64,000 nt of DNA from Xylona heveae TC161 (taxonomy: Eukaryota; Ascomycota; Xylonomycetes; Xylonales; Xylonaceae), in the NCBI RefSeq assembly GCF_001619985.1, contig NW_017264196.1, positions 2,232,001 to 2,296,000 of the forward strand, written 5' to 3'. Under the pieces are notes generated by a model. The model was not told the DNA's origin and did not search any database. It worked only from the letters and a program-made list of their open reading frames with translations. Both the position numbers and the translations under genes were made by a program. Of this stretch, positions 1 through 18,691 are shown piece by piece (the first letter of the stretch is position 1; every line of letters begins with the position of its first letter).

Positions 1-1209
1 TTTGGAATAAACCCCGGCTTATTGATTTAGCCTGTCAAAACGATTTTTTGATTAACATAATGAAACAAAAATTTAAAATTTGATGAGTTAGAACTACAAG
101 CGTTCGAGTCACATAAGCTTTCTCTAGCTATGTAAGCAAGCAGGTACTTTACTAATTGCACGTATTAGCACCAAAAAGCAAATTTATTTCGCAATTTAGC
201 CTCATAATTCATCCAAGCAGAACATCAAACAATAGACAGCTTCCCATAGAGGACACAAGAGGACTAACCTACACGTAGGTCTAGTTGCCTACTCGGTACA
301 ATACTGATTAATTATATCCGAAAGACGCCTCAAAAACCTAAAGCTTCAATAGACAAGTTTCCGGATAATAGGCCGAAGAATCGAGACAAGTAGTGGTGTC
401 TGCCCCCATATGCTAACGTGGATAAGTAGAAGCAAATTATAGCGAAGAATGCTAGGTAAGCCTATTGAATTATGGTGGACGATCTTATTGTCAGGCTAAG
501 TACCAGTATCGACCATGAAGTTGTCTATCGCTTAGAATAAGAGATCCATTTAATCATTTAAGTATTTGTCATAGAATACAGTGAGGTACTGTGGAGAGAG
601 GGACGACCAACTAAGGCCAATAGGCAATGGCTTAGTCCGTAGATAATGGGCAACGGATAAGCGACTATAGCTATGGAATGGCTGAGGATAGTGGATAATG
701 GCTATGATTTGCTTTGTGAATAAATAAGAGACAGACACCCTCCAACCCCCACCGCCCCCAAAATAAAACCAAGGGGAGGTCTTTGCTGAGATTGATCGCT
801 CTATTCTCATTTAATAGTTATACTGAATGTTACCCCTAGCCGTGACCCATACTACGCTGAACCCCTCAACGAACCTCTCCCGGTCGTCTGCCTGGCAGTG
901 CTACTTCCGTAGGGTACTCCGTACTCCGCTTCGGAACTGCGAACCGCGTTGACTGGCCCTTCGGCTGGATATCCGAAAACACACCTACAACCTCGTATCT
1001 AACTTCCGACGGCGGATAGGGTATCCAACGGATTGCCCGACGGTCAACAGGCCTGATCGCACCGAATAATAAGATTCAAATACAGAACACCATCATGAAT
1101 GCTAGATCTATAAGAGATATCCCCTGCCGTAAGCGCGTAGTGATCGACTATGAGTCTATGACTTTGTGACCCATAGATATATACAACAACCAAGAATCAT
1201 TATCAGAAG
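1..1209. other. Gene-free left flank and aminotransferase promoter
   Basis: No convincing coding region is seen. The first 550 bases are AT-rich. A dispersed-repeat copy lies at about 591-830. The last 380 bases are the promoter of the aminotransferase and are more GC-rich. They contain two inverted CGG/CCG pairs of the kind Zn2Cys6 regulators bind: CGG-N9-CCG at 932-946 and CGG-N8-CCG at 962-975. A TATA-like atatata lies about 30 bases before the start codon. Confidence 0.6.
591..830 (+). repeat. Dispersed repeat relic, copy 1
   Basis: This stretch shares a block with 23385-23560 in the same orientation. Shared words are ggataagcgac, gctgaggata, atggctatgatttgcttt, cagacaccctcc, a run of C-rich sequence, and aaaataaaa, in the same order. 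The copies differ by substitutions and small indels. No terminal repeats or coding capacity are visible, so the family is unknown. It is probably an old, decayed mobile-element fragment. Confidence 0.6.
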
Positions 1210-2688
1210 ATGGCGACCCAAACACAGACAACGACCGCTGCTCCCGCGCAATCACTGTTCCAGACAGCTCCCTACATCCCACCAGATGCCATCTTTGCCC
1301 TGACTGCCGACTATCTGGCAGATCCATCCCCGAAGAAGGTCAATCTCGGCCAAGGAACATACCGCGATAGTAACGGCCAGCCGTGGGTATTGCCGTCCGT
1401 GCGGAAGAGCCGCCAAATTCTGCAAGACCAGCAATTGAATCATGAATATTTGCCCATCCTCGGCCACGCTGGATTCAGAAAGGCTGCTGCAAAGCTGGTC
1501 CTTGGAAATTCGCTCTATCAACCTCTAGAGAAAAAGGTAAATTGAAAAGTGGAAAACGTCAATTCCATAACCGAATCACCACCCCGCTAACCATTTATTT
1601 TCTCCTATTCAAGATTGCCAGTTGCCAGAGTCTCTCAGGAACGGGTGCGCTTCATCTGGCGGGCTTGTTACTGCGGTACTGTCGAGGCACATCCGAAACT
1701 CCCACAGTGTACATTCCCACACCGACATGGTCAAATCATTTCCAGGTCTACTCTTCGCTTGGGTTCAAATGTCAGCCCTTTAAATACTACGACTCGGACC
1801 GAAAGGGTCTCGACTTTGAATCGTACATTTCCGCATTAAAATCAGCTGAGCCGAACTCAATCGTGATCCTGCATGCATGTGCTCATAACCCTACCGGTTG
1901 CGATCCCAGCCAGGAGCAATGGCGGGAAATCGGCGCAACCATGAAAGAGAGACAATTGTTCCCTCTCTTTGATGCCGCATATCTTGGATTCAACTCTGGA
2001 AATGTCGACAATGATGCGTTTGCCATTCGGTACTTTGTGCAAGAATTGAAAATGGAGATTGGACTATGTCTTTCTTTTGCAAAGAATATGGGACTATACG
2101 GTATGTCTTCCCGGTGTGGGGGGTGGGGGGAGAGGAAAGGGAAAAAACAGCTCTTACCAGCACTAGAATACTGACTCGTTACAGGTGAGCGTGTTGGGTG
2201 CTGTTTCGTCGTCACGGAAACAGAATCCGCAGCCAAGAATACCCAGTCTGTTCTCGAGATGCTGCAGCGGTCAGAAATCTCGAATCCTCCGGCCTATGGT
2301 GCCAAGATTGTGACTACAATCCTCGAGGACGAAGAATTGACGCAATTATGGTTCCAAGACCTCATCACGATGAGCTCACGCATCCGGTCAATGCGAGAGG
2401 CACTCTACAATCACTTGAATACCCATAAAGCGGCTGGCACATGGGAGCATCTCATTCAGCAGTCAGGCATGTTTGGATTCTTGGGCCTGTCGCCAGAAGT
2501 TGTTCGCACGCTCAAAGGTAGGGAATTGATTCTCATTTACTACTTTACGTAATTCAAAGAGTTTTCTAATGTCTTTGGCAGAGCAATATCACATCTACAT
2601 GGCTGATAATTCCCGCATTTCTATTGCCGGTTTGAATCCCAGCAATGTCGAATACGTCGCTCAGTCGATTGCAGAATGCCTGAAATGA
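1210..2688 (+). CDS. Aspartate aminotransferase (class I PLP enzyme)
   Basis: Four exons are inferred: 1210-1536, 1614-2100, 2185-2517 and 2582-2688, giving about 417 residues, a normal length for the family. The enzyme moves the amino group between aspartate and 2-oxoglutarate. Aspartate aminotransferases are also known to convert 4-hydroxyglutamate to 4-hydroxy-2-oxoglutarate. Family marks are the GQGTYRD start, SLSGTGAL, HACAHNPTGCDP, and SFAKNMGLYGERVG, which holds the lysine that binds pyridoxal phosphate. The N-terminus (MATQTQTTTAAPAQS) shows no strong mitochondrial presequence, so a cytosolic form is likely. Introns are 63-84 nt with GT-AG ends. It sits 5 kb from a group of proline-type catabolic genes, with COQ2 and YOS9 between, and its promoter carries CGG-N8/N9-CCG pairs like those genes. 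An aromatic aminotransferase of the same fold is less likely. Confidence 0.9.
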
Positions 2689-3552
2689 ATCGGGTGTTAC
2701 GAATTTTGAGCTTAATGAATATTCAGAGGGTATAACCTTGGAGAAGGAATGAGTCGATGACATTTTGCAAGTATTAGAAGTGTCAGGCTCTTAGACCATG
2801 TGCACTACCAAGATATAATTGAATGATGACGATGATGATGTTTTAAGCACACTATGAGACTACCAGTTTTCCAATTCAGATTCGTTGGCATTATTTGCAT
2901 ACTATGTGAATCGTAACGAAGTGTTGGCCGCTGACTAGAACTAATTAGAACCCCAGAAAACCTGAAAACCAATCACTAAGTTCCTCTGTAGAAAAGTTTA
3001 AACTATAATAATAGAATTTCTAGATCAAGCCGAGTAAATAAGATTAGATAGTTGTAATTTTAAGCAATCTTTCTGAATTATAATCAACTGAAAAGGTGAG
3101 GCAAAATGGTTTGCCTGTTTGCACTTCGGCACTAAGAATTGAGACACTTCAATTCTCAAAGGACACTTGGTCTTTTCTCCACGAAACCCCAGGCTCTTCG
3201 ATATCTGAGGTTTATGTAACATATTCTTTTCGGAAAATCTATGCCCAGTTTCTTCTATGACTATGACTTCTACAGTCGAGTCTATGCTACATGATTGAGA
3301 TGCGCTTGTGGAAGAAGTGCTATTTACAATATAGAGAAAGACGAAGACGAAGACGAAGACGAAAGGGGAGACAAAGGGAAAAAAAAAAAAAAATTGAAAA
3401 GAAGATGATGATGATGATGGGAACGAAGAAGAAGATGAACAATGCAGTAATGTTACAAACATACAGCTGGATCAACGAGTCAGCCACACCCTTTTTGTCA
3501 ACGCCTTTATACCATGATTTTATCTTATTAAACTACATATCGGACGGAAGTT
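2689..3552. other. Intergenic, simple repeats
   Basis: This lies between the 3' ends of the convergent aminotransferase and COQ2 genes. No gene is seen. A purine-rich low-complexity stretch occupies about 3336-3440, with an acgaag hexamer repeated about four times, a poly-A run, and a gat trinucleotide run. Open frames across it are an effect of the repeat. Confidence 0.6.
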
Positions 3553-4857
3553 TCAACTCTCCACACGCTCCTGCTGCTCATACAGTCCCAGCAGCTGTGC
3601 GAGATATTCCGCGCCCAGACCCGCGGTAATAGCACCGCCGGTGAGCCAGCAGCCGTAGCGGAACCACCACCAACAGTCTGCAGGACTCTTTAAACGGACT
3701 CGCCAGATCATGTACGCCAGCGAGGCCGCCGCGCCTCCGCACGTTCCGGCGAAGAAGACTGGACCTGCTCCAGCCGCGACACCAGCCGCGGCAAGCAGAC
3801 CCACCTGGGTGACCGCGAGACCGGACAAGATGGCCTTGGTGTCCTTTTCGTGTTTGAGCGCAATGGACTTGATGCCTGCTTTGACATCGTCCCGGATATC
3901 CATGTGTGCATAGATGAAATCGTAGAGAATCACCCAGGCGACGTTGCTGGCGTACAGGCACGCAGCGGCCGTGAGGGCGGACGTGTTGGAAAGCAAGTCC
4001 ACTCCGAGCGCAGGGAAGCCCATGATGGCGCCCCAGGAGAAAGTCAAGCCGAGGACGAATTGCGGGTAATGCGTGATGCGCTTGGCCAGGGGGTACACTG
4101 TCACAAAGGCGAGCGAGGGCACCGCATACCAGAAGCACTGCCATGGGAATTGGACAAGGACTGCTAGGCCGGCTAAGCCCTGGGCACCAGTGTAGACAAG
4201 GGCGTTGGTAGGTGAGACGGCGCCCCGCGCAATAGGTCGGAACCGCGTACGCGTCACATGGGGATCAAGCTTGCGGTCCCAAAAGTCGTTGATGGTGCAT
4301 CCAGCGCCGCGCATGATTAATGCGCCTGCGAAGAAAAGTGCGCCGGTAGAAAGGACGGCTAGGGGGGCTGCAATGGGAGTTGCCAGTGGCGCAGCCATCA
4401 AAGTACTCCACGCACAGGGCCAGAAAAGATAGTATGTTCCAGTCGGCTTATCCAGTCGAATCAACTCAGCATATGGTACCCAGGAGGAGGGCAGTTTCGA
4501 GAGCAGGCCCGTTTTCGGAGGTTCGTAGCGCGCGGGCAGAGGGTCTTCGATGTTAGAGATTTGGGGTTGGATCGCAGACGTCATTTGTGATCTGGTCAGC
4601 GGTTTCGAGATAAGGCTGAGAGGTGTTCTTTGCGTAGAGATAGATAGTGGTGAATGGCTTGTTGTGATAGCGAGTGGATGCTCATTAGCGGTCCGGCCGT
4701 CGCGCCGCGAAGATGTCAAGGACGAGGTTGATCGCAAGGCACAACGCTGTATGCTGAGAGCGCGTCCAAGGCGCGGATTGCAAGAAGGATATAGAGAGAC
4801 ATTCTTAGCAGCGGCGCAATGAAGCGCTCGCGCTCGTGGTAAGCTCCTAGCTAACAT
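3553..4857 (-). CDS. coq2: 4-hydroxybenzoate polyprenyltransferase (COQ2)
   Basis: This is a single exon of 434 residues. The enzyme joins the polyprenyl chain to 4-hydroxybenzoate in ubiquinone synthesis and sits in the inner mitochondrial membrane. It belongs to the UbiA superfamily. The two aspartate-rich motifs that hold magnesium and prenyl diphosphate are clear: NDFWDRKLDPHVTRTR from residue 190 and YDFIYAHMDIRDD from about 312. The first 90 residues are rich in Arg, Ser and Ala with few acids, as expected of a mitochondrial presequence. Several hydrophobic segments follow. The start at 4857 is taken because it gives the full presequence. A later start at the MTSAIQPQ methionine would remove it. 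The gene is probably housekeeping and not part of the neighbouring catabolic group. Confidence 0.93.
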   Translation of the reverse strand: MLARSLPRARALHCAAAKNVSLYPSCNPRLGRALSIQRCALRSTSSLTSSRRDGRTANEHPLAITTSHSPLSISTQRTPLSLISKPLTRSQMTSAIQPQISNIEDPLPARYEPPKTGLLSKLPSSWVPYAELIRLDKPTGTYYLFWPCAWSTLMAAPLATPIAAPLAVLSTGALFFAGALIMRGAGCTINDFWDRKLDPHVTRTRFRPIARGAVSPTNALVYTGAQGLAGLAVLVQFPWQCFWYAVPSLAFVTVYPLAKRITHYPQFVLGLTFSWGAIMGFPALGVDLLSNTSALTAAACLYASNVAWVILYDFIYAHMDIRDDVKAGIKSIALKHEKDTKAILSGLAVTQVGLLAAAGVAAGAGPVFFAGTCGGAAASLAYMIWRVRLKSPADCWWWFRYGCWLTGGAITAGLGAEYLAQLLGLYEQQERVES

Positions 4858-5716
4858 TGTGACAAGCTTCTAAGGAGATCATTAATAACGGAACGGCCAT
4901 TGCAACCGGAAAGGCGTACCACTTGTCTGGACTTTGCTGCAGTTTCCCGGAAAGAAGTGAATCCAATTGAGATTTGGCAGGTTTTCGAGACAAAATGCTT
5001 CCGCGGACTCAACTGACCAAAGCTTATTTCGACGTATTTCTACTCCTATCGGACCGAGGATGAGGCAGTTTCAGGCGAATGTCTGAGCGGAAGATCACGG
5101 ACAATTGAAACACTCGGTTCTCAATGCGAGGCCGTCTTGCAATAATCACCAACACAAGGCCAAGGGAAAGTTCCCAAAAGGTCCTCCGCCGCTGTCCCAA
5201 AAGGCCGACTCTTATCGTAGACTTGTCGGTTGTCGTCGGAGATTGAAATGTTGAAGATCCCCGGCGATACCTGGACGCGCGGTACGGCGGACGACGTGAG
5301 CCTCTCAAGCAGAACCCTTCGGCCAGACCTTCCTTGCCAGTGTTACATCAAGCAGATATATAAATTGGCGTTGGATTTCAATGTAATTCGTCCTACTACT
5401 AAGCCAATAGTTGGTTGCTTCATGTTTTCAAGAAGTAACATATAGACTCCAAGATAAAGAGTATCTCAATTAGACATCGTATTATTGTAAGCTTGTCAGA
5501 AAACGGAGAGCCATATACCAGCTGATAGGATATCTCGTGCGGTTAATTCAAGTTCAGTATGTTATATACTCCACCTTGTCTCTTTGCTGCTGTATCGCCG
5601 AGGTATGAAACGCCTAACCATGCAAGGTGTGCTAAGAGAAGAAAGAAATGAAGCAAAGTAGTAAGACAGGAGAAAACTGCAAATAACGGTTCAGGATATA
5701 AGAGGATGAAAGCAGG
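4858..5716. other. Intergenic, COQ2 promoter and YOS9 3' region
   Basis: No coding region is supported. The COQ2 promoter contains a CGG-N9-CCG pair at 4894-4908. This matters as a control, because the same pattern is found in front of the nearby catabolic genes. Confidence 0.5.
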
Positions 5717-7389
5717 TCATAATTCCTCCTTAAAAGTCCATCCCTTATCCTTCTCATTCTCATCATCATTCTTTTCTTCGCGCTTTGTACCCTCTTTTTC
5801 GCCTTGGGGATGTTTCTCGCCATCGTCCTCTCCATAATACTCCTCGTCATATCCTTCTTCTGTTTCTTCATCAATGTCGAGAACTCCACGAAGGCCACGT
5901 GTGCCGTCGCTCAGCTCGATGATCTCCAATCTCCACCCTTTTTCGCCTGCGAGCTCTTGAACCTCTTTACGTAGGTCTTCAATATTTTTCGGGTCGAGCT
6001 CTAGCTTTCGCAGATCTTCGTCTCCAAGGGACTGGACTCGTCCACCTTTGGCCACGGAATCACCCACCGCGACTACTTCCACAATCTCGTCCTTCCCTTC
6101 CAACGCTTGTAATTTGGCAGCCGTCGAGGACGTTTCAATGCGCCGGCCATCACCGCCGACCTCTTTTTTGGCACCCACTTCAATCCCGCCAATAATCGGT
6201 CGAGCCTTGACGCCTTCTCCCTCCCGAGTTTCATACGTCGTGCGCATTAACCTTTCCTGGATTTCCGTAGATTTCCGTGACTTCCACGCAGGCACGTCAG
6301 CTGCCGGGGTTATTTCACGGCATGTTATTGGATGGGCTCGATTCTCGCGCGGCGGTAGAAATGCTACGTCATTGCAAAGACGAGGTGTATAGACAACCAT
6401 AAGGTATGAGCATGTCGAAACTTCTTTGATCCAGCCGATACGGTCAATAGATTGTGGGTGGCAATGAAACTTGATTGGTCGACCAAAGTTAGCTTTAATT
6501 CTCAACGAATAAACCGGCATCGCAAATCGTGATTCTTACTTGGACTTCAATTTTCCTTTCCCTGCCCGTCAAGTCGCACGTAGTGCCTCCACCTAGCTTC
6601 TGTACGAGATATCGTGTTTCACCACGGGCTTGAAGCTGGGCAACGCCCATCTGACCCTTGGCTGCATCCGGATCATCTTTTGTCGTGCCGCCTTTGGCAG
6701 ATCCCCGCCCTTTGGATTCATATTGCCCAAGCACAAATGATGGTACCGAAGGGTCTTCGGCGGGTGGATAATTGGGGACACCCTTCCCCGGAGAAAGCTG
6801 GTGGAATTGCCTGACCTGATTATTGTGGCAGAACGAGTACGACCACCATCCTGAAATATAGTATAGACAGCCTTCCATATTGCTCAGCAGCTCCCAGCCA
6901 CGGTCAGTAGCGCGAGCGAGCTCTTGCTCGTGCTCCTGCTGTTTCTCTGCTTGAAATGTCGCATTCTTCTCCGGAGCAGCAACTTTTGGGATAGTGCAGA
7001 GATATTCCTTGTCTTTTAGAAGTAACTTTTCGTAAAGCTCACCAGTCGGTTCATCATCTGCCCTGGTGCCCTTGGGAGGGCGATCGTCAGCAGGAGCATT
7101 GTGACGGGTCAGCTCCACAGCAGGCTGTTGCTCCTTCAGGTGAGCCTCAGATGGCGGCGAACGAAGGTGCCTTTCGGCTTCAATATCTGTAATGAAACCA
7201 TCGGATATAATAACTTGATACTATTTATGTAATATGGGTTAATTGGCCGTTCACAGTGGGTTAACTGATTGGGTAAGGGCGAGCACAGCTTACCTGGGGA
7301 AAGGCGAGGAGGTCATCATGAACGCTGAACACAGCCTTGCTAGCAAAAGCAGCTGAGACAATAGTCAACAGCACCACGATGACTTTCAT
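5717..7389 (-). CDS. yos9: ER quality-control lectin Yos9 / OS-9
   Basis: Three exons are inferred on the minus strand: 7389-7294, 7220-6540 and 6469-5717, giving 509 residues. Yos9 binds trimmed N-glycans on misfolded proteins in the ER lumen and passes them to the Hrd1 ligase for degradation. A signal peptide (MKVIVVLLTIVSAAFA) opens the protein, followed by FSVHDDLLAFPQ, typical of fungal Yos9. The mannose-6-phosphate-receptor-homology domain starts near residue 149 with GCLYYISGWWSYSFC, which holds the WW sugar-binding pair. It continues across intron 2 into DRIGWIKEVSTCSYLMVVYT. The C-terminus is acidic and ends in KEEL, which resembles an ER-retrieval signal. Splicing at intron 2 gives IEVQ-FHCHPQ, matching the family. 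Confidence 0.9.
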
Positions 7390-7898
7390 ATTGCCATTCC
7401 TTGAGAATACGGCGACTAGCCTTAGCAATATGTTGCACGGCGTGAGGGCCAAGTGTCCCCAATATGCTCGGAGGTTCGGGATAACCCAACGCCGCGATGT
7501 TGTCATAGCACAAGGCATTACCCGGAGCCTGTCACTAACCACAACCCCGGACCGACGCGGACGAAATAAGCTAAATAATGCTCGAATGGTGTTGATCCAC
7601 CAAATGTTATTATCTCTGAAATGTAGCATGAAAACGGAAAGAGAGGTGCACCAAGCTCACAAAACGAGTAGATTTAAATTGGCTAGAAGTTCTTGCTTAA
7701 TTTTTTCACACAAAGGCAGCTCCGTTTTGGCTACGCTCTCACTAAAGGCAGGTTGAAAGTTCTGTAGAAGATTCTTCCGGCTTGGCATGGTCTTCAACCT
7801 TGGAAGCCTCTATGAGAGGTCATTATGAGATAAAAAAAATTTGAATACATGGAAACAGCTGAATAAAGAAATAGATATCTTTAAATTGCAGCGAATGT
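7390..7898. other. Intergenic, YOS9 promoter
   Basis: Only the upstream region of YOS9 and the 3' region of the next minus-strand gene are seen. No gene is supported. Confidence 0.5.
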
Positions 7899-9082
7899 TT
7901 ATTTTCCGCCTTGTCGACTCTTTTCATTCCAGAAGCTCAATCCAGCTTCTTGCCGCAAAACGCCATACATAGAGCTGGTATCCAAACATTCTCCGCCGTA
8001 TTCTCTCGCCGCTCTCATGTTCTGGTCAGCGAGTGTTAAGCCTGGTAGTTTGACATTGCGCTCTTTGGCCATCGATAGTGCATGTTTGGCATCCTTAATA
8101 GCCAACGACACTCCAAACCCAGGTCGGGTGTCGAGCTGAGGGGCATATGCTCCAGAAGTCAAGCTTGTACAGGGTTAGTCTTGACCTACATCAAGATGTC
8201 AGGTGTGCATGGACGCGACATACCGCTTGGAATATCCTCCTGCAACCGCTCCAAATGACTCTCCGATCAAATTCTCCATGGCTTCGGTGCCGAGACCGGT
8301 TTGCTCTGCAAACACCTGGGCTTCTCCAACAGCCTCCATCAGACAGATGGTGATGATGTTGCTAATTAGTTAGTTATTTGAACGTATGGAAGACAAAATT
8401 AGTAGAATGATATGCGGTAATGTGCTTACCCGCCAATCTTCAACAGAGACGAATTTGCCGGGTCCTCTCCGCACTGGATAACCTTTCTTCCCATGACATT
8501 ATTGATGTATCGTTCCACCGACTCACAGGCAGACTTGGGGCCACCGATGGCAAACACGAGAGTTCCCGGAACCGCAAGGGCCGGGCCACCAAACACTGGG
8601 GCTGAAACAAGCACAGCCTCATGGCTGGCCAGATCGGATGCCAATTTGCTAATAGTTTCTGGATGCACCGTGGAGCAATCGACAAAAATCTTGCCCGACA
8701 ATGTTTGGCATTCAGAAATAGCAGACTCGATGAGTCCTGAAAGAACCTCGTCATTTGGGACCTAGTATGGTTTAGCCTTCGTACATGAATATCTCGACTT
8801 ATAAAATTACCATTGTGAAGACAATATTACACTGCTTCACCAAGTCAACAAATCCGGTAGCTGGCACAGCGCCTAGTGCCTTCAATGTCTCGCCCGAACT
8901 CATAGACCGGTTGAAGTATTTCAACGGCTGTTCAGCGTTCTTTGCGATGTATTTCTGCAAATTCTCGGCCATGGGACGGCCCATGGAGCCCAGTCCATAC
9001 TTTGGCATGTTAGCAATAGGAAATCTTTAGCACGTGGCATTATTTCTCATACCCAGCCAATTTGTGGTTTATCCAGCGTCAT
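7899..9082 (-). CDS. Beta-hydroxyacid dehydrogenase family oxidoreductase
   Basis: Five exons are inferred: 9082-9053, 8999-8811, 8761-8430, 8361-8224 and 8163-7899, giving 317 residues, normal for the family. Members are NAD(P)-dependent and include 3-hydroxyisobutyrate dehydrogenase, tartronate semialdehyde reductase and plant glyoxylate reductase. The dinucleotide-binding turn is spliced together across intron 1 (IGW-YGLGSMGRPMA). Other marks are FTMVPNDEVL, DCSTVHPETISKLA, SAPVFGGPALA, and LLKIGGNIIT with the catalytic lysine. A helical C-terminal domain follows. Exon 1 codes for only ten residues. The substrate cannot be read from sequence. Its place beside P5C dehydrogenase and a 2-oxo-acid aldolase makes reduction of glyoxylate, or of another short oxo-acid, a reasonable guess. 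Confidence 0.85.
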
Positions 9083-9705
9083 CTTGCGGGGTAAGTTCAA
9101 AAATTAGTCGCCTAGAATTTCGATGAAGGAATGCATCAAAGAGCCTGTCGCTCTTCTTTTGTATTGGAATAGCAAGCCCCGTCCCCTTCGGACCCTGAGG
9201 GGAACTAGGCATTTTCTTGCGTCCAATAGTCCAATGGAGTGGAAAGAGACCCATCGTTATCATCGTGGTTTGGCTGGGGATCCGCAACCTCGGGAACTGA
9301 TCCGAAAGCAACCCATACGGTGGGACGGAGACAATGCCGATGCCCACCACTCTACTACTCTTGATCTATACCTGCAAATGCTTCGAGAAAACCTCGATGA
9401 TTAGATTCTGGTACTCCACCCCGAGATCAAATATTACGGAGTAAGCCATTCGATAGCTGACGCGGATCGATCCGGGGAAGACCCATCCTGAATTGATGTA
9501 CCAAAATTAACTTGTTCACAATTTAGATTGCAGATTTCAATTTGAGTCAATTCGACCTTGGTTCATCAAAATTCCAGTTGATAAATTGATCGTATCTCTA
9601 TCTATTATACCGAGACATATCCAGCCATTCCAAAAGCCATGCGAAACAACTTTACTGATGATGGACTCAGTTCTTCAGAATGGACCAGTACCCCGCCGCG
9701 TCTTA
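9083..9705. other. Intergenic, oxidoreductase promoter
   Basis: No gene is supported. A CGG-N8-CCG inverted pair lies at 9291-9304, about 210 bases before the oxidoreductase start. Confidence 0.5.
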
Positions 9706-11031
9706 TCAATCGAACCTGGAACGACTATCCGCTTCCGATTTTAAACCGTCGTCAATTCCCGTCAGTTTTAGCCTGTCAAGGGTTGGGGCATCGCTGCGGA
9801 GGTGGATATTGCGCTCGGTTATTGCATAGCTTGCCCTTCTCCCCGATCTCATCCCAGGAACTTTCGAACAACCTCGACCCTGTTGCTTTTCGATTAAACA
9901 TGTTCCCGGGAAAAAACTTGGCTTTGCTTTTTCACTTACGTAGCAAATGTACCAGCACTCACTGGCATGGCACGAAGTAGAGCAGGTCCGAGGCCGTGAA
10001 ACAGTCCCTTTACGCCACCAGTTGCCCAAGTTTGACGGAAAGCGTGTCTCATGGTAGAGTATTTCTTGTCGGAGCCGAAGCCATCGCTCTGCATCTTGCT
10101 CTTGATCACATCTAGCGGATGGCTCAGCAGCCAGAGCGTCTCGCCTGCAAGACCTCCGCACAGCGCAATCTGCCAGCTGGGAAGCTCTTCTCGTCTCTTC
10201 TGCTGGTGATGCATTGCCATTCCTACGAGGCCCTCATACGCGGCAAACCAGACACCATAGCCGTGGAATTCTCTGAGAAGAGTGACCGCTTGGCCGCGAT
10301 ACACTCCAGAGATACCGGCACTTTGGATGATCTTCCGGGTACAATCCCAGGGCCCATTGTAGATTCTCGCTGCTCCATGAGGCTGGGTTTGCAAGCGAAT
10401 ACGAATATGTTCGACAGGACCCGAGACCACACTGTTTACCACTCCGGCTGCTCCACCGGCGAGGTAGAACTGGGTCAAAGATAGAGTAGGATCAACCCCT
10501 GGATATGCATCTTTGTTGTAGGATTCAATGGCTTGTCGAAATCCATGGAAGGCGCCAAATTGGATGCTAACCTGCAGCGCAATGAGTCGGAGACGATGTT
10601 GAATGGACGGGTGAATGGACTTACACATGCACCAATGCCGAGCAATGGCAGAAGGGAACCCTATAAGATCTGCATCAAAAACAAAAATAAAGCCAAAGGC
10701 AATACATACCTTGTAAAATGCTAGAGGTCCTTCTTTTACCCAGACGTTTCGAGCGGTCGAAAAGGCATTTCCTCCGCCTTGGGTTTGCAACCGGACTTTG
10801 ACCAGATCTGAATGGTCCCATTAGAATAGCCACAAGCATGTTTCTACCATACATAACATACCAAATGGTTGGCCTAGAAGCTTTTAGTTACAATATTTAC
10901 CATTCTCCCTGTGATCATTACTCACCTATTAAAACTTGAGCAATTCCGCCGGCCGCACCGGCTGTTAGATCCTTAGCAATCTCCCTCCAGCCGGCCACAT
11001 TGGCCGCTCCTGTTTCAAAATCCAAAGCCAT
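9706..11031 (-). CDS. Mitochondrial carrier (SLC25 family, Ymc/acylcarnitine-like)
   Basis: Inferred exons are 11031-10926, 10873-10862, 10807-10710, 10660-10625, 10571-9940 and a short last exon. The product is about 316 residues, typical for the family, with three repeats and six membrane segments. Carrier signatures are QPFDLVKVRLQTQ in repeat 1, GPVEHIRIRLQTQ in repeat 2 and HPLDVIKSKMQ in repeat 3. Exon 2 is only 12 nt and supplies part of the first signature (G-Q-P-F-D). The likely membrane is the inner mitochondrial one. The cargo is not readable. The closest families move amino acids or acylcarnitines, and import of a substrate for the neighbouring mitochondrial enzymes is plausible. 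The last exon is uncertain: acceptors after 9772 or 9715 both keep the frame to the stop at 9706. The start at 11031 fits homologues, and an in-frame ATG at 11103 is less likely. Confidence 0.85.
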
Positions 11032-11310
11032 AATAATACACTCATTGTTATCAATTGCAAAGAGGGCCCAAATTTTAAATGTGCTCTGGGGAGAGCTGAT
11101 CACTTGTCACAGGGCGTGGCATGGTGGCGGATTGGTCTGAAAAGCGTCGGAAGCTGGGTCCGAGCTACTCGTGCTTCGGCCTCCCTCCCGACAAGGGCGT
11201 AAAGTTGATTCCTCCTCCGCAAATAAATACAAAGCTAGACACTTCATGAAGTGCAGCTGACAATCTTTAAGTTTGCTCACACTTTTTTCATATCTATCCA
11301 TATTTTTGCC
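11032..11310. promoter_or_regulatory. Shared divergent promoter, carrier and P5C dehydrogenase
   Basis: Only 279 bases separate the divergent start codons of the carrier and the P5C dehydrogenase, which favours joint control. The stretch holds CGG-N9-CCG at 11148-11162 and CGG-N8-CCG at 11177-11190, layouts used by Zn2Cys6 dimers. Binding by the nearby Zn2Cys6 protein is inference. Confidence 0.5.
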
Positions 11311-13196
11311 ATGTCGTTTGCTCTGAGAAAACGTTCCTTCCCACTGGCTCGCGCGCTCGAAGGTGGAGCACGCAGGCATCTTGGAGGCCTGGCAGCGTTC
11401 AAAACTCCTCCCGTCCGCAATGAACCCAATGTACGATAAACAAACTCCTTTTTACAACTCCCGTGGCTAATTCAAACTCCAGCCGTCGTATGCCAAAGGC
11501 TCAGCAGAGCGGGCAAGACTTCAAGATGCCATCGACAAGCTCAAGAGCCAGGTTCCCGTCAAGGTTCCTTTGACTCTCAATTCAAAACTGGTATGCACGG
11601 TCATGGTAAATGTCCAATTCTCTACACTTGTCTAATTCTGTTTGTAGATTCAATCTTCTTCAGTTTGCACCCAGACCAATCCGTCAGTACACAAGGAAGC
11701 GCTTGCATCTTACTCTGAGGTCACTGCAGACCAAGTCAAGGAGGCGATTGAAAAGGGATTGGAGGCCAAACCTGCCTGGGAAAATATGTCCTTCACCAGC
11801 CGGGCCTCCATCTTTTTGCGAGCAGCAGAATTGGTCTCGACCAAATATCGCTACGACATTATGGCGGCCACCATGTTGGGTCAAGGCAAGAACATCTGGC
11901 AGGCAGAGATTGACGCTGCTGCAGAGACGTGTGATTTCTACCGTTTCAGCGTGCACTATGCGTCGGAGCTTTACAAGCAGCAGAATACCGTGAACGAGTC
12001 AGGAATGTGGAAGTAAGTCACTCTCATTATTTTGTGTATCTCTTTGACTGGGGCTAAAATCAAATCTTGTTTACAGCCGGTTGGAATACCGTCCCCTTGA
12101 AGGCTTCGTCTATGCCGTCAGTCCGTTCAACTTTACTGCCATACCCGCCAATTTGATTTCTGCCCCAGCACTCATGGGCAACGTCGTCATCTGGAAGCCT
12201 TCCGACTACGCCATCTATTCCAACTATCTGCAGATGAAGATTTTAGAGGAAGCCGGTCTGCCTCCAAATGTCATCCAGTTCCTTCCCGGCAATCCCAAGA
12301 CGGTGACTGATGCAGTCTTGGAACATCCCAAATTTGGTGCCTTGCATTACACCGGATCGACCGAGGTTTTCCGAGACGTCTATGGTCAAATCTCTGATGG
12401 TGTCCGAGCCGGACGCTACGACAGCTACCCTCGCATTGTGGGAGAAACTGGCGGCAAGAACTTTGGAGTGGTTCATAGCAGCGCGGACATTCGGAACGCC
12501 GTCGTGCATACGATCCGGGGTGCCTTTGAATACCAAGGCCAGAAGTGTTCCGCCACCTCTCGACTTTACGTGGCAGAGTCAGTGTGGCCGGCATTCAAGG
12601 AGCAGTTGGTCAAGGAAACCGAGAAGCTCAAAATGGGCAAACCAGATCAATTCGACAACTTCATCGGGCCGGTCATTCACCAACGGTCGTGGGAGAAGTT
12701 GAACAAAGTCATCGAAGAGGCCAAGAATGATTCAACCGTGACCCTCCTCGCAGGTGGAAAGACGGACCGTGACGAGGGCTGGTTCATCCAGCCAACCGTC
12801 TTCCAGACCCAGGATCCTCACCATTCCCTCATGTCAACCGAACTCTTTGGTCCCATCCTCTCCGTCTATGCCTACCCGGATAGCAAATTCGAGGAGACTC
12901 TCTCGCTCGTCGATTCAACGTCAAAGTTTGGCTTGACTGGTGCTGTCTTTGCCAAAGACCGTGCTGCCATTGACACCGCCGAGAAGCTTTTGCGCCAGTC
13001 TGCAGGCAATTTCTATATCAACAGCAAGAGCAGTGGTGCTGTTGTTGGCCACCAACCCTTTGGAGGCTCCAGAGCTAGTGGCACCAATGACAAGGCGACC
13101 AGCGCCAACTTACTGTCTCGTTTTGTCAGCGTCAGAGGCATCAAGGAGGATTTCCAGTTGGCGGATGAGATTACATATCCTTCAAACGAGGTATGA
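11311..13196 (+). CDS. Delta-1-pyrroline-5-carboxylate dehydrogenase
   Basis: Four exons are inferred: 11311-11430, 11483-11590, 11648-12012 and 12077-13196, giving 570 residues. The enzyme oxidises glutamate semialdehyde (P5C) to glutamate with NAD in the mitochondrial matrix. In animals the same enzyme turns 3-hydroxy-P5C into 4-hydroxyglutamate. It belongs to the aldehyde dehydrogenase superfamily. The N-terminus (MSFALRKRSFPLARALEGG) is a mitochondrial presequence. VSPFNFTAIPANL, GETGGKNFGVVH with the active-site glutamate region, FEYQGQKCSATSR with the catalytic cysteine, and GHQPFGGSRASGTNDKA are all intact. It corresponds to fungal prnC/PUT2, but whether it is the main copy or a cluster-specific second copy cannot be told here. 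It is divergent from the carrier and tail-to-tail with the Zn2Cys6 regulator. Confidence 0.94.
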
Positions 13197-13436
13197 GCGT
13201 AGAAGATATGATGGTATAGCCTTTTCCGGATTCATTGTATAGTACTATTAGCGGGCAAATGTTTCTTTTTGCATTATTTCATGCGTATATATATGTTGGT
13301 TATTCTGTATCTAAAAAATAGGGAATAGTGATGAAAAAAAAAAAGAAGTTTACTCCATTTATCGCTCCATCGATCCATCAAGTCTCCAATACAAAAGCTA
13401 ACAAGAAAGGTTTAAAAGAAAGTAAATCCAGAAAAT

Positions 13437-16075
13437 TCAATCCCCATTCTGCCTGTCAAATATTTTCTCAATCTCTTGCCAATCCGAGTGATCGACGCCG
13501 GTAAGAGGCATCGATGGGTCGAAGAAGCTGGAATAAATCTCCTCAGCCTCGACCGAAAGATCCAGGTTCCAGTCTCCCTGCATGTCAAAAGTCGTATTAT
13601 TGGCATCCGGGTGCATCCACGGCTCAAGTAATCTACTTTCGTCTGTGTCATTAGTCCAGCCTTCCGCCGCTACGGTGGAACGTTGAGGAGGTGGTGGTGA
13701 TTGAGGCAAGCGTATATCACTTGCACCTGCAGATCTAGATCCCTGTGCTGTTTCGGCATGCTGTCGGTTTCTTTCCAGGGCAAAGTTTGACCAGACATGC
13801 AAGCAAGAGTGTGTAATGTCTTGTAAACGGCGTTCCGCAGCCAAGTTACCGGCTCGGGACAAGAACCGAAGAATCTCAAACGCCTGATCCAGGGCAGCGG
13901 GCGGTCGGTCCTGAGCCTTATCGACAAAGCCCATCATTACCAGGACGAATGCAGCTGAAAATGTGGCATCTAGGTCAAAAAAGCCATATCGGGCTGCAGA
14001 CTATGTTAGTATGAGACATAAGTATTTAGAACATAGGAAGGCATGGCATACGAATGATTTGTTGACGCTTTAGGGCGTAAAGAATGGCCAGGCTTTTAGC
14101 GGCTGCCTCGCTACATGTTTCACACAGACGTGCTAATACAACAGGGACGGATTGCGGAGGCTGCTGGTTGTTTTGCCTCTCGACCTCCTGACGAACGCGT
14201 TGTAAGAGAATAGGACGAACACACAGGATAATGGCCTGTCAATTTTCAAATTAGCTCAAAACAGTACTATGGTCATTTAGGACAGACGAACCTGGAACAA
14301 CATGAGATAGAGCGATGCTCCTGTCCGTGTTACTGCCTGAGGAGGGCGACTAAAGTCCAGGACAAGAGCAGGGGGGAAAGAACGGCCAATGTCATAGAGA
14401 CTGTGAAGGATTGCCTGAATCTTGTGGACAAGTTCCATTTGGGTAGTGCATGCATTCCCATACAAGCCTTGACTTTGTATTAGATGCTGATGATTGTAAC
14501 TTCAGTTCGAATATATGGGTTGGTACATACACGACATGATATCATCCGTGGCCCGTGCAATGCGGACGTTGATAGAAAGAGGAATGGGAGATTGAAATCC
14601 AATGGCGTTATGAGGAAGCTCTGCATGTAGCTGTCGTTCGTCTGCACCGGCCGCTAGTCCAAGACTAGATGAAAGACGTCTACACCATCATACTGTTTAG
14701 TCAAGGGTTGTGTATGCGGGCCAAGGGAAAACAAAAAAAAGAAAAAGAAAAGAGAATGCCTACCGGTCTAGCATATAGACAGTCCACCACAATCTCACCC
14801 GATGGGCAGATTTTGAAGGCAAACAGCATTGCTCTTTGGGTGGTTTATCACAACCCAGAGCAATGGCCAGCCGTAATGCAAGGCCAATCTGTATCCAATT
14901 AGTCATGATAGACAATTCAGATATGAAACATCAAGACGCACATATAAATATGCATCATGCTTCCGGTCACACCATTGAAGATATGTAGTGATAAGCGTTA
15001 GGATCTCAACAGCAATGACGCCCTCCTCGCCCAATTGGTATAATCGCGGCAATCGTCTCATCGCCTCTGCAAATAAATCTGCTCCTGGTGGTTGAAACGA
15101 AGGGTCTTCCACATCGATCAGCTTTGCCATTGCCATGACAAGCAGATACTCTGTAAACCATGTTGTGCGCATTTGATTTTCCCGTGTTTCCTCATTTTGA
15201 AAGAGCAGCGTCATGCAGTCGGAAAAGGTGCGAGGGTCAAAGAACTGCTGGCTAACACCCAGGTAGAAAAGAAATCGATCAAGTAGTTGTTGCGATTCCT
15301 CTGGAGATGGGATTGTCGGCGCACCATGGTCATTTAGTAACGGCCTGGCCGATGTCCATTGCGTAGATATTTCGTTTGAGGCTGTGTTCTTGGGAATATG
15401 AGCATTATAGCTTCTGGTTGCATGGTTCCTATCAAGAAGTGACTTGACTCGTGATTCAAATGCTGGGCCCGATGTCAAATCGGTCACTGATTTCGTCAAT
15501 TGAAGCCGGAATATGTAAAGATGGCAGCTTACTTGGACTAACGCCCTGCTCGCTATCATGAAAAGATCCGGTCTCCACTGTTGGCTCATCAAGGGCAGTC
15601 ACGTTGGGTGTGGAAGGGTCAGGGTGTGCAGGAGGAAGAGGAACTGGTGGCTGTGCTGAATCTGCTGGTCGTCAAAAGTTCGTGGTATGGTCGTATTGTA
15701 AGATATGCTTATTGACATACCTTGAGAGCGGGCATTGAGTTGCTCTTCGTATGATTGTACCTTATCTAATAAACCCTTCACATAGCTTCTCGACGGTCAA
15801 TGAAGGGGTATTGCTCGCACAAGGAAGTGCAGACATACGCTTCGGAATACCGCTTACGCCCGACATGGCCAAACGTACATTCCCAATTATGTCTGGAGCA
15901 GCTGCGACATGGCTGTTCCCCAGAGCACTTAACTTTACGTCGCCGGCAGGACTGACATCTACAGATATATCAACATAAACAATTTAGACTCACTGAACCG
16001 CTCGTCGGAGGGAGCATCCGAAGGAGAGGATGATCCGACTTACGCATTGGTCGCCCGCGGATTTGGAGCCACCAT
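13437..16075 (-). CDS. Zn2Cys6 transcription factor with fungal-specific domain
   Basis: Ten exons fit in one continuous frame: 16075-16044, 15958-15839, 15785-15721, 15661-15533, 15486-14942, 14888-14764, 14664-14533, 14472-14292, 14235-14052 and 13993-13437, giving 689 residues. The binuclear zinc cluster begins at residue 11, is split by intron 1, and reads CQSCRRRKVKC then CRSC then C in WECTFG. A linker with coiled-coil character (LLDKVQSYEEQLN) follows. The middle region (LYIGLALRLAIALGCD, VRLWWTVYMLDR) is typical of the fungal-specific transcription-factor domain. The tail is acidic and Trp/Asp-rich, possibly activating. It sits between P5C dehydrogenase and the aldolase, so it may regulate this catabolic group. 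That role is inferred from position only. Its own promoter has CGG-N9-CCG at 16190-16204. Confidence 0.88.
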
Positions 16076-16450
16076 CCTAAATTTTCAATGAATTGAACAG
16101 TAACATCAAAGGAGGAAACTATTGTATCAGCTGTTCAATCATTGCAGGCAATAAAATTTGGGTTGAGATAGAGCATTGCTGGATGTCGTCGGCACTGGAA
16201 CCCGTTGAGGTTGGCCGGAGTAGAGGTTAATCCGCCACCCGAATGCAATTGGTTTGCCACCTGAGACCCTGAAGAAGCCTTATCTTATCATTTGATAACC
16301 CACATTAAATTTGGACAGAACATTCTTGCAAAATGATGTTATACAGACTTTTATTTTGTCAATCTGTGACATATGGGCTATAGAGGCTGAATAAACTCAT
16401 ACAGTACGGAAATATGTACAGCAACATGCTGACACTGGCATTATTTCATA
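16076..16450. promoter_or_regulatory. Promoter of the Zn2Cys6 regulator
   Basis: This 375-base gap lies upstream of the regulator and downstream of the aldolase. A CGG-N9-CCG pair at 16190-16204 is 115 bases before the regulator start and could allow self-control. No gene is seen. Confidence 0.4.
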
Positions 16451-17462
16451 TTACAACTGTTTCTCCAAGTCTACCATAACTTGAAGAGCATCCAAGATTT
16501 CTCCTTGAATTGCACCCACCTCTGCCCGAGGCAATGGCTTCCGTGGCTGTGAGCTGCCATAGCCAAAAAATTTGGTGCTGGCCGCCTTAACCCCCGAGAT
16601 ACCCAGCTTCAAAAGCGCCCAGTCGGCAACGGACAGCTTTCGTTGGATTTCTTGTGCCTTCTCGAACTCTCCAGATTGATAAAGTTGAATTGCCTTGACA
16701 TGGACTTTGGGGACGACATTTGCTAAAGCAGCAATGACACCATTAGAGCCCGCCGTTAAGCCGGGAAGGAGAAAGTCTGATTTTCCAGCAAAGGGAGCAA
16801 ATTCGGATGCAGCAAAAGACGCAGAAAGACGCTGCAGCTTGCCCAAATTTCCGCACGTAAGCTTGACGCCAACAATCTGTGGGTAGGACCGGGCTAGATC
16901 AATAATGAGATCCGAGTCAAGGTCAATGTTAGATGTTACGCCGGGGAAATTGTAGATGACTATCGGAAGCGCTGACTTGCTAGCAACCTAAGCGATCGTT
17001 AGCCAAATTCTGTAAACTTAAGTCGATTATAGAGGACGGGTAAAATAGGTAGATAAGAAGGCTTACTTCGGCGTAGAATCCTCTGATAACTGGCTTGCTC
17101 ATCGCGGCACTCCAGTAGCTGGGAGGCAACACCAAAGCATAATTTGCCCCCGCCTTTTCGGCCTCTGAAATGTTCAACAATGTCTCGCGCACACTGTTGG
17201 CACTGCATCCGGCAATGATGACAGCTTCGGGGTAATCTTTGCTGGCAACCGTGCGAACGTGACGGATTATCTGGGCTCGTTCTTCACGTAACAAATGTGT
17301 GGCTTCGCCATTGCTTCCGTGCACGACTAGACCAGCGACGCCGCTTCCAAGGAGCCTCTGGACATGCTGGGTGATGCTGTCATAATCAATGTCCTCATTC
17401 TCGTGGAAGAATGTCACCATGGGAGTATAAACCCCATACCGCGGAGGTTGTATGGAAGGCAT
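16451..17462 (-). CDS. DHDPS-family aldolase, candidate 4-hydroxy-2-oxoglutarate aldolase
   Basis: Two exons are inferred: 17462-17067 and 16987-16451, giving 310 residues, the usual family length. This is a TIM-barrel, Schiff-base aldolase of the dihydrodipicolinate synthase family. VHGSNGEATHL has GSNGE where true DHDPS has GTTGE. The same change is found in animal HOGA1 and in fungal 2-keto-3-deoxy-sugar-acid aldolases such as GaaC. VIYNFPG carries the catalytic tyrosine and VGVKLTCGN the Schiff-base lysine. Fungi make lysine by the aminoadipate route, so a DHDPS function is not expected. Beside proline-type oxidation genes, cleavage of 4-hydroxy-2-oxoglutarate to pyruvate and glyoxylate is the best guess. 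A sugar-acid aldolase is the main alternative. The promoter has CGG-N9-CCG at 17614-17628 and CGG-N7-CCG at 17637-17649. Confidence 0.85.
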
Positions 17463-17759
17463 GATGTGGGTATCTTAAAAAATTAAAATTACTCAAAAAT
17501 TCAAAGGAAGATAAATGCACTCGGACATTAGGCATCTCGAATCTATTTAAATGTAGAAATCCTGACTCTTCGGTGTCTTGGCTGAGAAGCCGAGAATTGA
17601 AGGTGAAGCATTTCGGCTCTTTTCGCCGGATGCCTTCGGCAATAGCCCGATATCGTCGGACCACCCCGCTATTCAACCGCAGATAAGATTGGAGCCCCAA
17701 ACACTTTCTATAATGCAGTCTATGCGATCGTGGAAATCCCTATAATACAGTCTGTATAT

Positions 17760-18691
17760 TTAAAACGTGAAAATATTCTTCATGCGCCGCTTGACCTCCG
17801 TCTTGAGGGCGAGGTATTCCTGCCTAGTTATCCCTACCGCATCACGATTCTCCACCGCACGGCGCAGAAGATAGGACAGGCAGTCCCCGAGAGTTCCCCA
17901 ACTGAGACATTTGTACACTTCAGGAGAGGCCCGTTGCGCCGCTGGGCTGCTATCGTCACGAAGTTGTAATAACCGGCAGCTGACCTCATCAGCCATTCCC
18001 AGCAATTTTCCGTATTGCACCTTGGATGTGGGTTGCCCAGCGGCAAGTCGCTGTTTGTATAGTGAATCGGCCAGCAAAGCACTTTCCTTATTATGGGTGG
18101 CGACATAAGAGAAACTTACTTCAAGGCCAAAAAGTCGTCCGTCCCCACCATATCAGCCGTCTCCAAAACTCCCTCTCTCCATGCCTCAATCTCTGGATTC
18201 TTGATCTCAGTTGGCCGTTTCTCCACGCTCCCTTTGACAGTTGCAGGGCCATTAGATGAGGCATCAATCACAATTTCTCGAGCATAAGTGAGAATGACTC
18301 CCTTGAAACCCATGTCCTTAATCCGGCCGATAGTGCCGGTGACTTCAGCAGCATTTTCTCCAGCACAGAAATGGTTGTAGAATGTTGTTTTCAAGAATCC
18401 TCGCAGCAGCGGATTCTTGTTTACGTCCAGTAAAGACAGGCGAGGGTGCGCTATGATGGTGAGTATCCTCAGTGCTGGAGTCAACAGCCAAGGATGGGAA
18501 GAGACCGTAGCCACCAGGAGAGATCGCCATAGCATTTTATTTGGTAATAGAGAGTGTGGTGGCAATTCATCCTTGGTCACATTTAATGTTGATTTGGAGC
18601 GATACAATGAGCGCGTGTTGTATTGATAGCAAAACGCATTGGCTACCAATCCAGCCCTTCGTGCAGGGCGAATAGCCATTCTGGTGACCAT
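17760..18691 (-). pseudogene. Proline/hydroxyproline dehydrogenase with lost central domain
   Basis: The two ends of a proline-dehydrogenase-family protein are present, but not the middle. The 5' half (18691-18119, 191 codons) opens with a mitochondrial presequence (MVTRMAIRPARRAGL) and has the family segments FYNHFCAGENAAEV and MGFKGVILTYARE. It ends after GTDDFLALK at a TAA that overlaps a gtaagt donor-like site. Only about 15-40 bases later, in another frame, the 3' half resumes with VATHNKESALLADSL, YGKLLGMADEVS and YLLRRAVENRDAV, and stops at 17760. Intact fungal enzymes are about 450-500 residues. Roughly 170-200 codons of the FAD-binding barrel are missing, probably one deletion starting inside or beside an intron. 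No splice choice I tried joins the halves in frame. Without the barrel core it should not oxidise proline or hydroxyproline. An assembly error is possible. Confidence 0.85.

What the first reader, a model, noticed from the sequence alone, without database searches (positions are those of the whole stretch)
1210..18691. Candidate fungal trans-4-hydroxyproline catabolic gene cluster
Within 17.5 kb lie members of every enzyme family in the animal mitochondrial hydroxyproline pathway: a proline-dehydrogenase-family gene (17760-18691), P5C dehydrogenase (11311-13196), aspartate aminotransferase (1210-2688) and a DHDPS-family aldolase with GSNGE as in HOGA1 (16451-17462). A beta-hydroxyacid dehydrogenase that could reduce the glyoxylate product (7899-9082), a mitochondrial carrier (9706-11031) and a Zn2Cys6 regulator (13437-16075) are also there. 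Plain proline catabolism needs no aldolase, which points to hydroxyproline. I know of no described fungal cluster of this make-up, though I cannot search. COQ2 and YOS9 lie between the aminotransferase and the rest, so its membership is the weakest.
Basis: partly seen in the sequence, partly recalled or inferred. Interest (0 to 1): 0.82.

Follow-up and report, generated by a model that had tools for sequence, protein, structure and literature searches.

The report
Fungal hydroxyproline-breakdown cluster, first gene broken
A tree-dwelling fungus carries a set of neighbouring genes, probably acquired from an Aspergillus-like mould, that looks built to break down hydroxyproline by the route animals use, but its first enzyme gene has lost its core here.

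Summary
The genes are there, but the organism is Xylona heveae TC161 (aldolase and P5CDH 100% identical), not a Eurotiales fungus, and the PRODH gene is broken: 156 barrel residues, including the PutA Asp370 and Arg431 positions, are gone. The cluster is not chance. At least two of aldolase, PRODH and second-copy P5CDH share a contig, judged by its length, in 9 of 22 other taxa; locus numbers lie 3-5 apart in three. The best trees put all three Xylona genes inside Aspergillus/Penicillium, so cluster transfer is likely. An inverted repeat, TCGG-N7-9-CCGA, lies 5' of the aminotransferase, dehydrogenase, carrier/P5CDH, aldolase and PRODH genes but not of COQ2 or YOS9: 8 sites in 18 kb against 0.7 expected. 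It ties in the doubted aminotransferase. GSNGE is not diagnostic. PRODH has Cys where PutA has Tyr540, which favours proline over hydroxyproline; whether the classical fungal proline oxidase also has Cys is unresolved. The genome also holds one unlinked proline-racemase-family protein. Best reading: a trans-4-hydroxyproline cluster, crippled in Xylona. No substrate has been assayed.

The parts
1210..2688 (+). Aspartate-aminotransferase-family gene, 4 exons, 417 aa, no basic N-terminal presequence; proposed 4-hydroxyglutamate transaminase
   Evidence: PF00155; PRK09257 415.8 bits, cut-off 377; other places in the genome match it at 34-53% identity by stretch
961..976 (.). TCGG-N8-CCGA site 5' of the aminotransferase
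7899..9082 (-). 3-hydroxyisobutyrate-dehydrogenase-family gene, 5 exons, 317 aa; proposed glyoxylate reductase
   Evidence: PF03446, PF14833
9290..9305 (.). TCGG-N8-CCGA site 5' of the HIBADH-family gene
9936..11031 (-). Mitochondrial carrier (SLC25 family); last exon not fixed because the frame ends at a possible splice donor
   Evidence: 3 Mito_carr repeats; closest other copy 59% at C3:1974423
11147..11191 (.). Two sites (11147 N9, 11176 N8) in the divergent carrier/P5CDH promoter
11311..13196 (+). [quoted passage not shown]
   Evidence: (TIGR01236)
13437..16075 (-). Zn2Cys6 transcription factor (Zn_clus + Fungal_trans), about 670 aa in a splice model that is not certain; two copies of the motif inside (13854 coding, 16005 intron 1)
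16451..17462 (-). DHDPS-family aldolase, 2 exons, 310 aa, HOGA1 catalytic positions kept with Ser198 replaced by Thr
17636..17650 (.). TCGG-N7-CCGA site 5' of the aldolase
17760..18691 (-). Broken PRODH-family gene: N-terminal exon 18116-18691 and C-terminal piece 17760 to about 18110; 156 aa of the barrel missing; Cys at the PutA Tyr540 position
18856..18870 (.). TCGG-N7-CCGA site 5' of the PRODH remnant

Best explanation
This is a catabolic regulon for trans-4-hydroxy-L-proline that uses the animal-type route, probably acquired whole from an Aspergillus/Penicillium-like donor and now crippled in Xylona heveae. Proposed steps: a Cys-type PRODH (hydroxyproline dehydrogenase) makes 3-hydroxy-pyrroline-5-carboxylate in the mitochondrion; the second-copy P5CDH oxidises it to 4-hydroxyglutamate there; the carrier moves 4-hydroxyglutamate to the cytosol; the presequence-free aminotransferase makes 4-hydroxy-2-oxoglutarate; the presequence-free aldolase splits it to pyruvate and glyoxylate; the HIBADH-family enzyme reduces glyoxylate. 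The Zn2Cys6 protein switches the set on through TCGG-N7-9-CCGA. Shown here: the genes, their families, co-location of three of them in relatives, tree placements of those three, the shared motif, the PRODH deletion. Inferred: substrate, compartments, carrier and reductase roles, binding of the factor to the motif. In Xylona the first step is lost or taken over by the intact Cys-type PRODH on contig C8.
For: Aldolase, PRODH and second-copy P5CDH on one contig (by length) in F. torreyae; aldolase+PRODH in P. daleae, I. destructans, F. mexicanum; aldolase+P5CDH in A. niger; PRODH+P5CDH in A. steynii, C. rosea, C. nymphaeae, Polychaeton. Locus numbers: P. daleae 012825/012829, F. torreyae 001536/001541, A. 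niger 4840/4843. P5CDH lies in a clade apart from canonical P5CDH, to which the C1 copy belongs. Aldolase lies in a clade apart from the three paralogues and keeps Ser77, Asn78, Tyr140, Tyr168, Lys196, Gly222 of HOGA1, with Thr for Ser198, a change reported to keep kcat but raise KM 7-fold (PMC3188589, passages). Cys at PutA Tyr540 (role of Tyr540 from PMC3718742, passages). Motif: 6 sites in 2.7 kb of cluster promoters against 0.11 expected, none between 976 and 9290, where COQ2 and YOS9 lie. Transfer: p-AU 0.052 (P5CDH), 0.029 (PRODH), 0.0065 (aldolase) against Aspergillus/Penicillium held together without Xylona.
Against: The local PRODH cannot work as it stands. All 116 homologs of 340 aa or more in the list have Cys, and the 50 of them put in a tree fall in more than one clade, one widespread; if the classical proline oxidase PrnD is among them, Cys says nothing about hydroxyproline. 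The aldolase is no closer to HOGA1 (30%) than its paralogues are (29-33%), and 111 of 116 homologs carry the same active-site letters. 13 of the 22 other taxa present in more than one list did not share a contig, though some entries are other strains or sister-clade aldolases. Motif spacing varies from 7 to 9 and was chosen after reading the promoters; 1 of 100 whole-window shuffles reached the observed 9 sites, and genome-wide the motif (977) is no commoner than its reversed control (1069). AU groups were named after seeing quick trees, and P5CDH alone is not rejected at 0.05. A single proline-racemase-family protein on C15 could be an epimerase of a different hydroxyproline route. The carrier, reductase, aminotransferase and regulator were not tested in relatives.
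Confidence: 0.6

Rival explanations
1. It is a duplicate proline-utilisation (prn-like) cluster: PRODH, P5CDH and a Zn2Cys6 activator for proline, with the aldolase and dehydrogenase serving something else.
For: PRODH, P5CDH and a Zn2Cys6 activator are part of the A. nidulans prn cluster (PMC5983819, passages). A second, divergent PRODH-P5CDH-Zn2Cys6 cluster on C8 has no DHDPS-family gene on its contig, with the same motif. Cys at Tyr540 may be a general fungal trait.
Against: The aldolase shares a contig with PRODH or P5CDH in P. daleae, F. torreyae, A. niger, I. destructans and F. mexicanum and has the promoter motif, as does the aminotransferase; proline to glutamate needs neither. No PrnA-type site (CCGG-N-CCGG or CCGG-N6-7-CCGG) in the window. 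A Tyr-type PRODH (C3) and a canonical P5CDH (C1) exist elsewhere.
Confidence: 0.17
2. The substrate is another hydroxylated or substituted cyclic imino acid (for example cis-4-hydroxyproline or another 4-substituted proline) processed through the same four chemistries.
For: Sequence does not fix stereochemistry; the Cys would open the pocket without choosing a substituent (inference and PMC3718742, passages).
Against: The aldolase step is explained only if a 4-hydroxy-2-oxo acid forms; trans-4-hydroxyproline is the abundant natural source, from plant wall proteins and collagen (general knowledge).
Confidence: 0.12
3. Unrelated neighbours: the aldolase is a sugar-acid (GaaC/LRA4-type) enzyme that lies here by chance.
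For: All are DHDPS family; GSNGE is shared with paralogues; one member of the sister clade is labelled 2-keto-3-deoxy-L-rhamnonate aldolase by its source (P0040).
Against: Linkage in several genera, shared motif, concordant tree placement, clade of its own.
Confidence: 0.04
4. A non-functional relic in Xylona: a transferred cluster whose first gene decayed and which has no present role. Compatible with the best explanation for the cluster's origin.
For: PRODH deletion; the only other PRODH matches in the genome are two complete genes.
Against: The other cluster genes read as open spliced frames with their family matches, the aldolase keeps its catalytic residues, and an intact Cys-type PRODH exists on C8.
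Confidence: 0.4

Closest known systems
Animal mitochondrial hydroxyproline pathway (PRODH2/HYPDH, P5CDH, GOT2, HOGA1)
   Same: Same four enzyme families in the same logical order (PMC8779045, passages); PRODH lacks the Tyr540-type residue.
   Different: Clustered with a regulator, carrier and reductase; aminotransferase and aldolase lack a basic presequence, so probably cytosolic; aldolase only 30% identical to HOGA1; Cys at the Tyr540 position (human PRODH2 has Ser there: recalled, not tested).
Aspergillus nidulans prn proline cluster (prnA, prnX, prnD, prnB, prnC)
   Same: PRODH, P5CDH and a Zn2Cys6 activator side by side (PMC5983819, passages).
   Different: No amino-acid permease among the genes modelled; aldolase, aminotransferase, carrier and reductase present; no PrnA-type sites in the window.
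Bacterial hydroxyproline pathway (2-epimerase, D-hydroxyproline oxidase, DHDPS-family deaminase, KGSA dehydrogenase; recalled)
   Same: Also pairs a DHDPS-family protein with an aldehyde dehydrogenase; a proline-racemase-family protein exists elsewhere in the genome (C15).
   Different: No epimerase or D-amino-acid-type oxidase among the genes modelled in the cluster; the aldehyde dehydrogenase is a TIGR01236 P5CDH and the oxidase is PRODH family.

Membership tests
Animal-type hydroxyproline pathway | PRODH-family hydroxyproline dehydrogenase with intact catalytic core | tested here: not met
   In Xylona 156 aa missing. Orthologues with the core residues exist in other fungi.
Animal-type hydroxyproline pathway | No Tyr at the PutA Tyr540 position | tested here: met
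   Cys; spacing to the Tyr552/Arg555/Arg556 equivalents (12, 15, 16) matches. Diagnostic value open because PrnD was not available.
Animal-type hydroxyproline pathway | P5CDH | tested here: met
   TIGR01236 over cut-off
Animal-type hydroxyproline pathway | Aspartate aminotransferase under the same control | tested here: inconclusive
   AAT-family gene with the shared motif 5' of it; linkage in relatives and expression not tested
Animal-type hydroxyproline pathway | HOGA: Lys196, Tyr168, Tyr140, Ser77, Asn78, Ser198 | tested here: inconclusive
   All kept except Ser198 to Thr; the same letters in 111 of 116 fungal homologs aligned
Animal-type hydroxyproline pathway | Activity on hydroxyproline and 4-hydroxy-2-oxoglutarate | not testable with these tools
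   needs assay
A. nidulans prn cluster | PRODH, P5CDH and Zn2Cys6 activator adjacent | tested here: met
   (PRODH broken)
A. nidulans prn cluster | PrnB-type proline permease in the cluster | tested here: not met
   None among the genes modelled in 1-20.8 kb; the only transporter there is a mitochondrial carrier
A. nidulans prn cluster | PrnA sites CCGG-N-CCGG or CCGG-N6-7-CCGG | tested here: not met
   0 in 64 kb
GaaC/LRA4-type sugar-acid aldolase | Groups with characterised members in a tree | tested here: inconclusive
   Window aldolase is in a 22-row clade (SH-aLRT 98) of a tree of 48 of 119 homologs, apart from the genome's other three (with a long-branch warning); no characterised GaaC/LRA4 sequence was in the set
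Bacterial 4-hydroxyproline pathway | Hydroxyproline 2-epimerase | tested here: inconclusive
   One proline-racemase-family protein on C15, unlinked to the cluster, Ser at the first and Cys at the second catalytic position by eye; its reaction is unknown
Bacterial 4-hydroxyproline pathway | D-hydroxyproline oxidase | not tested
   Not among the genes modelled in the cluster; not searched for in the genome

The most novel reading that the evidence does not exclude
A horizontally travelling fungal hydroxyproline regulon: a split-compartment version of the animal pathway in which the dehydrogenase uses Cys in place of the proline-selecting Tyr, with its own Zn2Cys6 activator reading TCGG-N7-9-CCGA, passed into a xylonomycete endophyte beside a second, divergent cluster (PRODH-RidA-P5CDH-Zn2Cys6) that reads the same kind of site.
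Probability: 0.44. Interest if true: 0.66.

Novelty: new variant of a known kind. Interest (0 to 1): 0.56.

Why it matters
Some fungi grow on hydroxyproline (A. fumigatus does, slowly: PMC2526178, passages), yet the listings of library searches (titles and abstract starts; some capped) showed no described fungal gene set for it. If the reading holds, it gives named genes to delete and express, shows the animal pathway recurring in fungi as a gene cluster, and shows a nutrient-use cluster moving between fungal classes.

Tried and rejected
GSNGE as a HOGA1 marker: rejected, in 114 of 116 aligned homologs. PrnA sites: none in the window. phmmer of the intact PRODH P0124 against solved structures: no match at 0.001, so the Tyr540 register rests on motif spacing. 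ARAGORN found no tRNA in the window (bacterial setting). GC content does not set the cluster apart. The ten paper searches listed no fungal hydroxyproline cluster; I saw listings only, one search showed 15 of 2,055 papers and 20 of 32, and most subscription papers are not held. Synteny could be read only through contig lengths and locus numbers, as no fungal genome collection was on hand.
Full report
What the sequence is. The window is contig C4:2232001-2296000 of a 24.28 Mb genome. Its aldolase and P5CDH are 100% identical to Xylona heveae TC161 proteins, class Xylonomycetes.

The genes. Spliced models and Pfam/NCBIfam confirm an aspartate-aminotransferase-family gene, COQ2 (UbiA), a PRKCSH gene that fits YOS9, a HIBADH-family gene, a mitochondrial carrier, a P5CDH over the TIGR01236 cut-off, a Zn2Cys6 factor and a DHDPS-family aldolase. 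The PRODH-family gene is broken. Its first exon ends at an old GTAAGT donor and runs into a stop, and what follows resumes at the LATHN-type motif; 156 residues present in the intact P. daleae orthologue are missing, including the positions of PutA Asp370 and Arg431. The genome search for PRODH finds only this remnant and two complete genes, on C3 and C8.

Copies elsewhere. The C3 PRODH has no P5CDH near it and the C1 canonical P5CDH has no PRODH on its contig. C8 holds a PRODH, a RidA-family gene, a P5CDH-like aldehyde dehydrogenase and a Zn2Cys6 gene side by side; its factor is the best match to the window's regulator outside the window, narrowly (28%). The genome has three other DHDPS-family proteins, 38-44% identical to the window's; HOGA1 is 30%.

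Is it a cluster? Apart from Xylona, 9 of the 22 taxa present in more than one list share a contig: F. torreyae (all three genes), P. daleae, I. destructans, F. mexicanum (aldolase+PRODH), A. niger (aldolase+P5CDH), A. steynii, C. rosea, C. nymphaeae, Polychaeton (PRODH+P5CDH; in Polychaeton the PRODH is of the other Cys clade). Where sequential locus numbers are printed for two genes they are 3 to 5 apart: P. daleae 012825/012829, F. torreyae 001536/001541, A. niger 4840/4843. The other 13 taxa did not match; some entries are different strains or aldolases of the sister clade, and only the longest contig is printed per protein cluster, so the count is noisy.

Trees. The window P5CDH is in an 18-row clade (SH-aLRT 99) of second-copy enzymes, apart from the canonical clade that holds the C1 copy (40 of 120 hits used). 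The window aldolase is in a 22-row clade (98) without the three paralogues (48 of 119 hits used; the tool warned of long branches among the paralogues). Careful trees place P5CDH beside A. bertholletiae (84% identity, bootstrap 96), aldolase beside A. wentii (79%, 97; the wider Aspergillus/Penicillium group only 80), and PRODH in a 5-row group of Aspergillus species plus Xylona (95). Holding the Aspergillus/Penicillium rows together without Xylona lowers the likelihood in each case, p-AU 0.052 (P5CDH), 0.0065 (aldolase) and 0.029 (PRODH). The groups were named after seeing quick trees, and the P5CDH result alone is not below 0.05. Three concordant genes make transfer of the cluster from a eurotialean donor the simplest account; retention of an old cluster with many losses is not excluded.

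Substrate. PutA Tyr540 restricts the pocket in favour of proline over hydroxyproline (PMC3718742, passages, citing Ostrander 2009, which is not held). The window PRODH and the C8 PRODH have Cys there, C3 has Tyr, and all 116 homologs of 340 aa or more in the list have Cys (4 shorter ones dropped). The register is fixed by the spacing to the Tyr552, Arg555 and Arg556 equivalents. The weak point is that these homologs fall in more than one clade (50 placed), one widespread, and I could not learn whether the classical proline oxidase PrnD is in it. The aldolase keeps the HOGA1 residues, with Thr for Ser198; the S198T human variant kept kcat with 7-fold higher KM (PMC3188589, passages). Those letters are common to 111 of 116 fungal homologs, so the case for 4-hydroxy-2-oxoglutarate rests on the company the aldolase keeps. 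One proline-racemase-family protein lies unlinked on C15, with Ser and Cys at the two catalytic positions by eye; it could belong to another hydroxyproline route and its neighbours were not read.

Regulation. Among 42 CGG/CCG pair patterns with spacing 0-20, CGG-N8-CCG and CGG-N9-CCG occur in the most cluster promoters (4 of 6 regions each). The longer form TCGG-N7-9-CCGA, chosen after reading the promoters, is in 5 of 6 regions; 0 of 2000 dinucleotide shuffles of the promoters reached 3. It occurs 977 times in the genome against 1069 for the reversed control, 9 times in the window (1 of 100 whole-window shuffles reached 9, mean 2.2) and 8 times in 961-18870, where 0.72 is expected from the genome rate. 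There is a site 5' of the aminotransferase and none between it and 9290, where COQ2 and YOS9 lie. The region 5' of the regulator has none, but the motif occurs in its intron 1 and in its coding sequence. L008, the C8 cluster, has 4 in 10 kb (0.40 expected; 0 of 200 shuffles reached 4), two of them between the RidA-family gene and P5CDH. No PrnA-type site occurs in the window.

Mechanism. The PRODH remnant and P5CDH have basic N-termini and the aminotransferase and aldolase do not, so oxidation in the mitochondrion, export of 4-hydroxyglutamate by the carrier, and transamination and cleavage in the cytosol is a reasonable inference. In animals all four steps are mitochondrial (PMC8779045, passages). 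The HIBADH-family enzyme as glyoxylate reductase is a guess from family.

Known or new. The chemistry is that of the animal pathway and the layout recalls the prn cluster (PMC5983819, passages), but prn's permease and PrnA sites are absent. A. fumigatus has been grown on hydroxyproline (PMC2526178, passages), and the passages I saw name only a proline oxidase and permeases. The listings of searches showed no fungal hydroxyproline cluster. I file it as a new variant of a known kind. In Xylona it is incomplete.

Noticed in passing
L007:8695-9894, L008:878-9923, L009:202-2119 (G000 C8:1030695-1044119): A second Cys-type PRODH cluster: DUF1932 dehydrogenase, flavin-reductase-domain protein, PRODH, RidA-family protein, P5CDH-like enzyme and a Zn2Cys6 factor, with four TCGG-N7-9-CCGA sites; its substrate is unknown and its P5CDH is very divergent.
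   Followed up: partly
G000 C15:70683-71663 (L062): The genome's only proline-racemase-family match (405 bits); Ser and Cys at the two catalytic positions by eye. Possible hydroxyproline epimerase or dehydratase; neighbours not read.
   Followed up: partly
P0206, P0213 (Fusarium PRODH entries): Two PRODH proteins are named 'aspartate aminotransferase, cytoplasmic' by their source, which may mean that an aminotransferase gene lies next to PRODH in these fungi.
   Followed up: no
P0268 (Colletotrichum karsti, 856 aa): One predicted protein holds both Pro_dh and aldehyde dehydrogenase domains: either a fused gene or a gene prediction that merged neighbours.
   Followed up: no
P0126 and P0200 (Penicillium argentinense N7532_002758 and _002804): Two PRODHs of two Cys clades carry locus numbers 46 apart on contigs of the same length.
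   Followed up: no
L027:5381-9996 (G000 C11): A GTNAE-type DHDPS-family protein (70% to 3qfe) lies beside a gene that matches the window's Zn2Cys6 factor: another possible small catabolic cluster.
   Followed up: no
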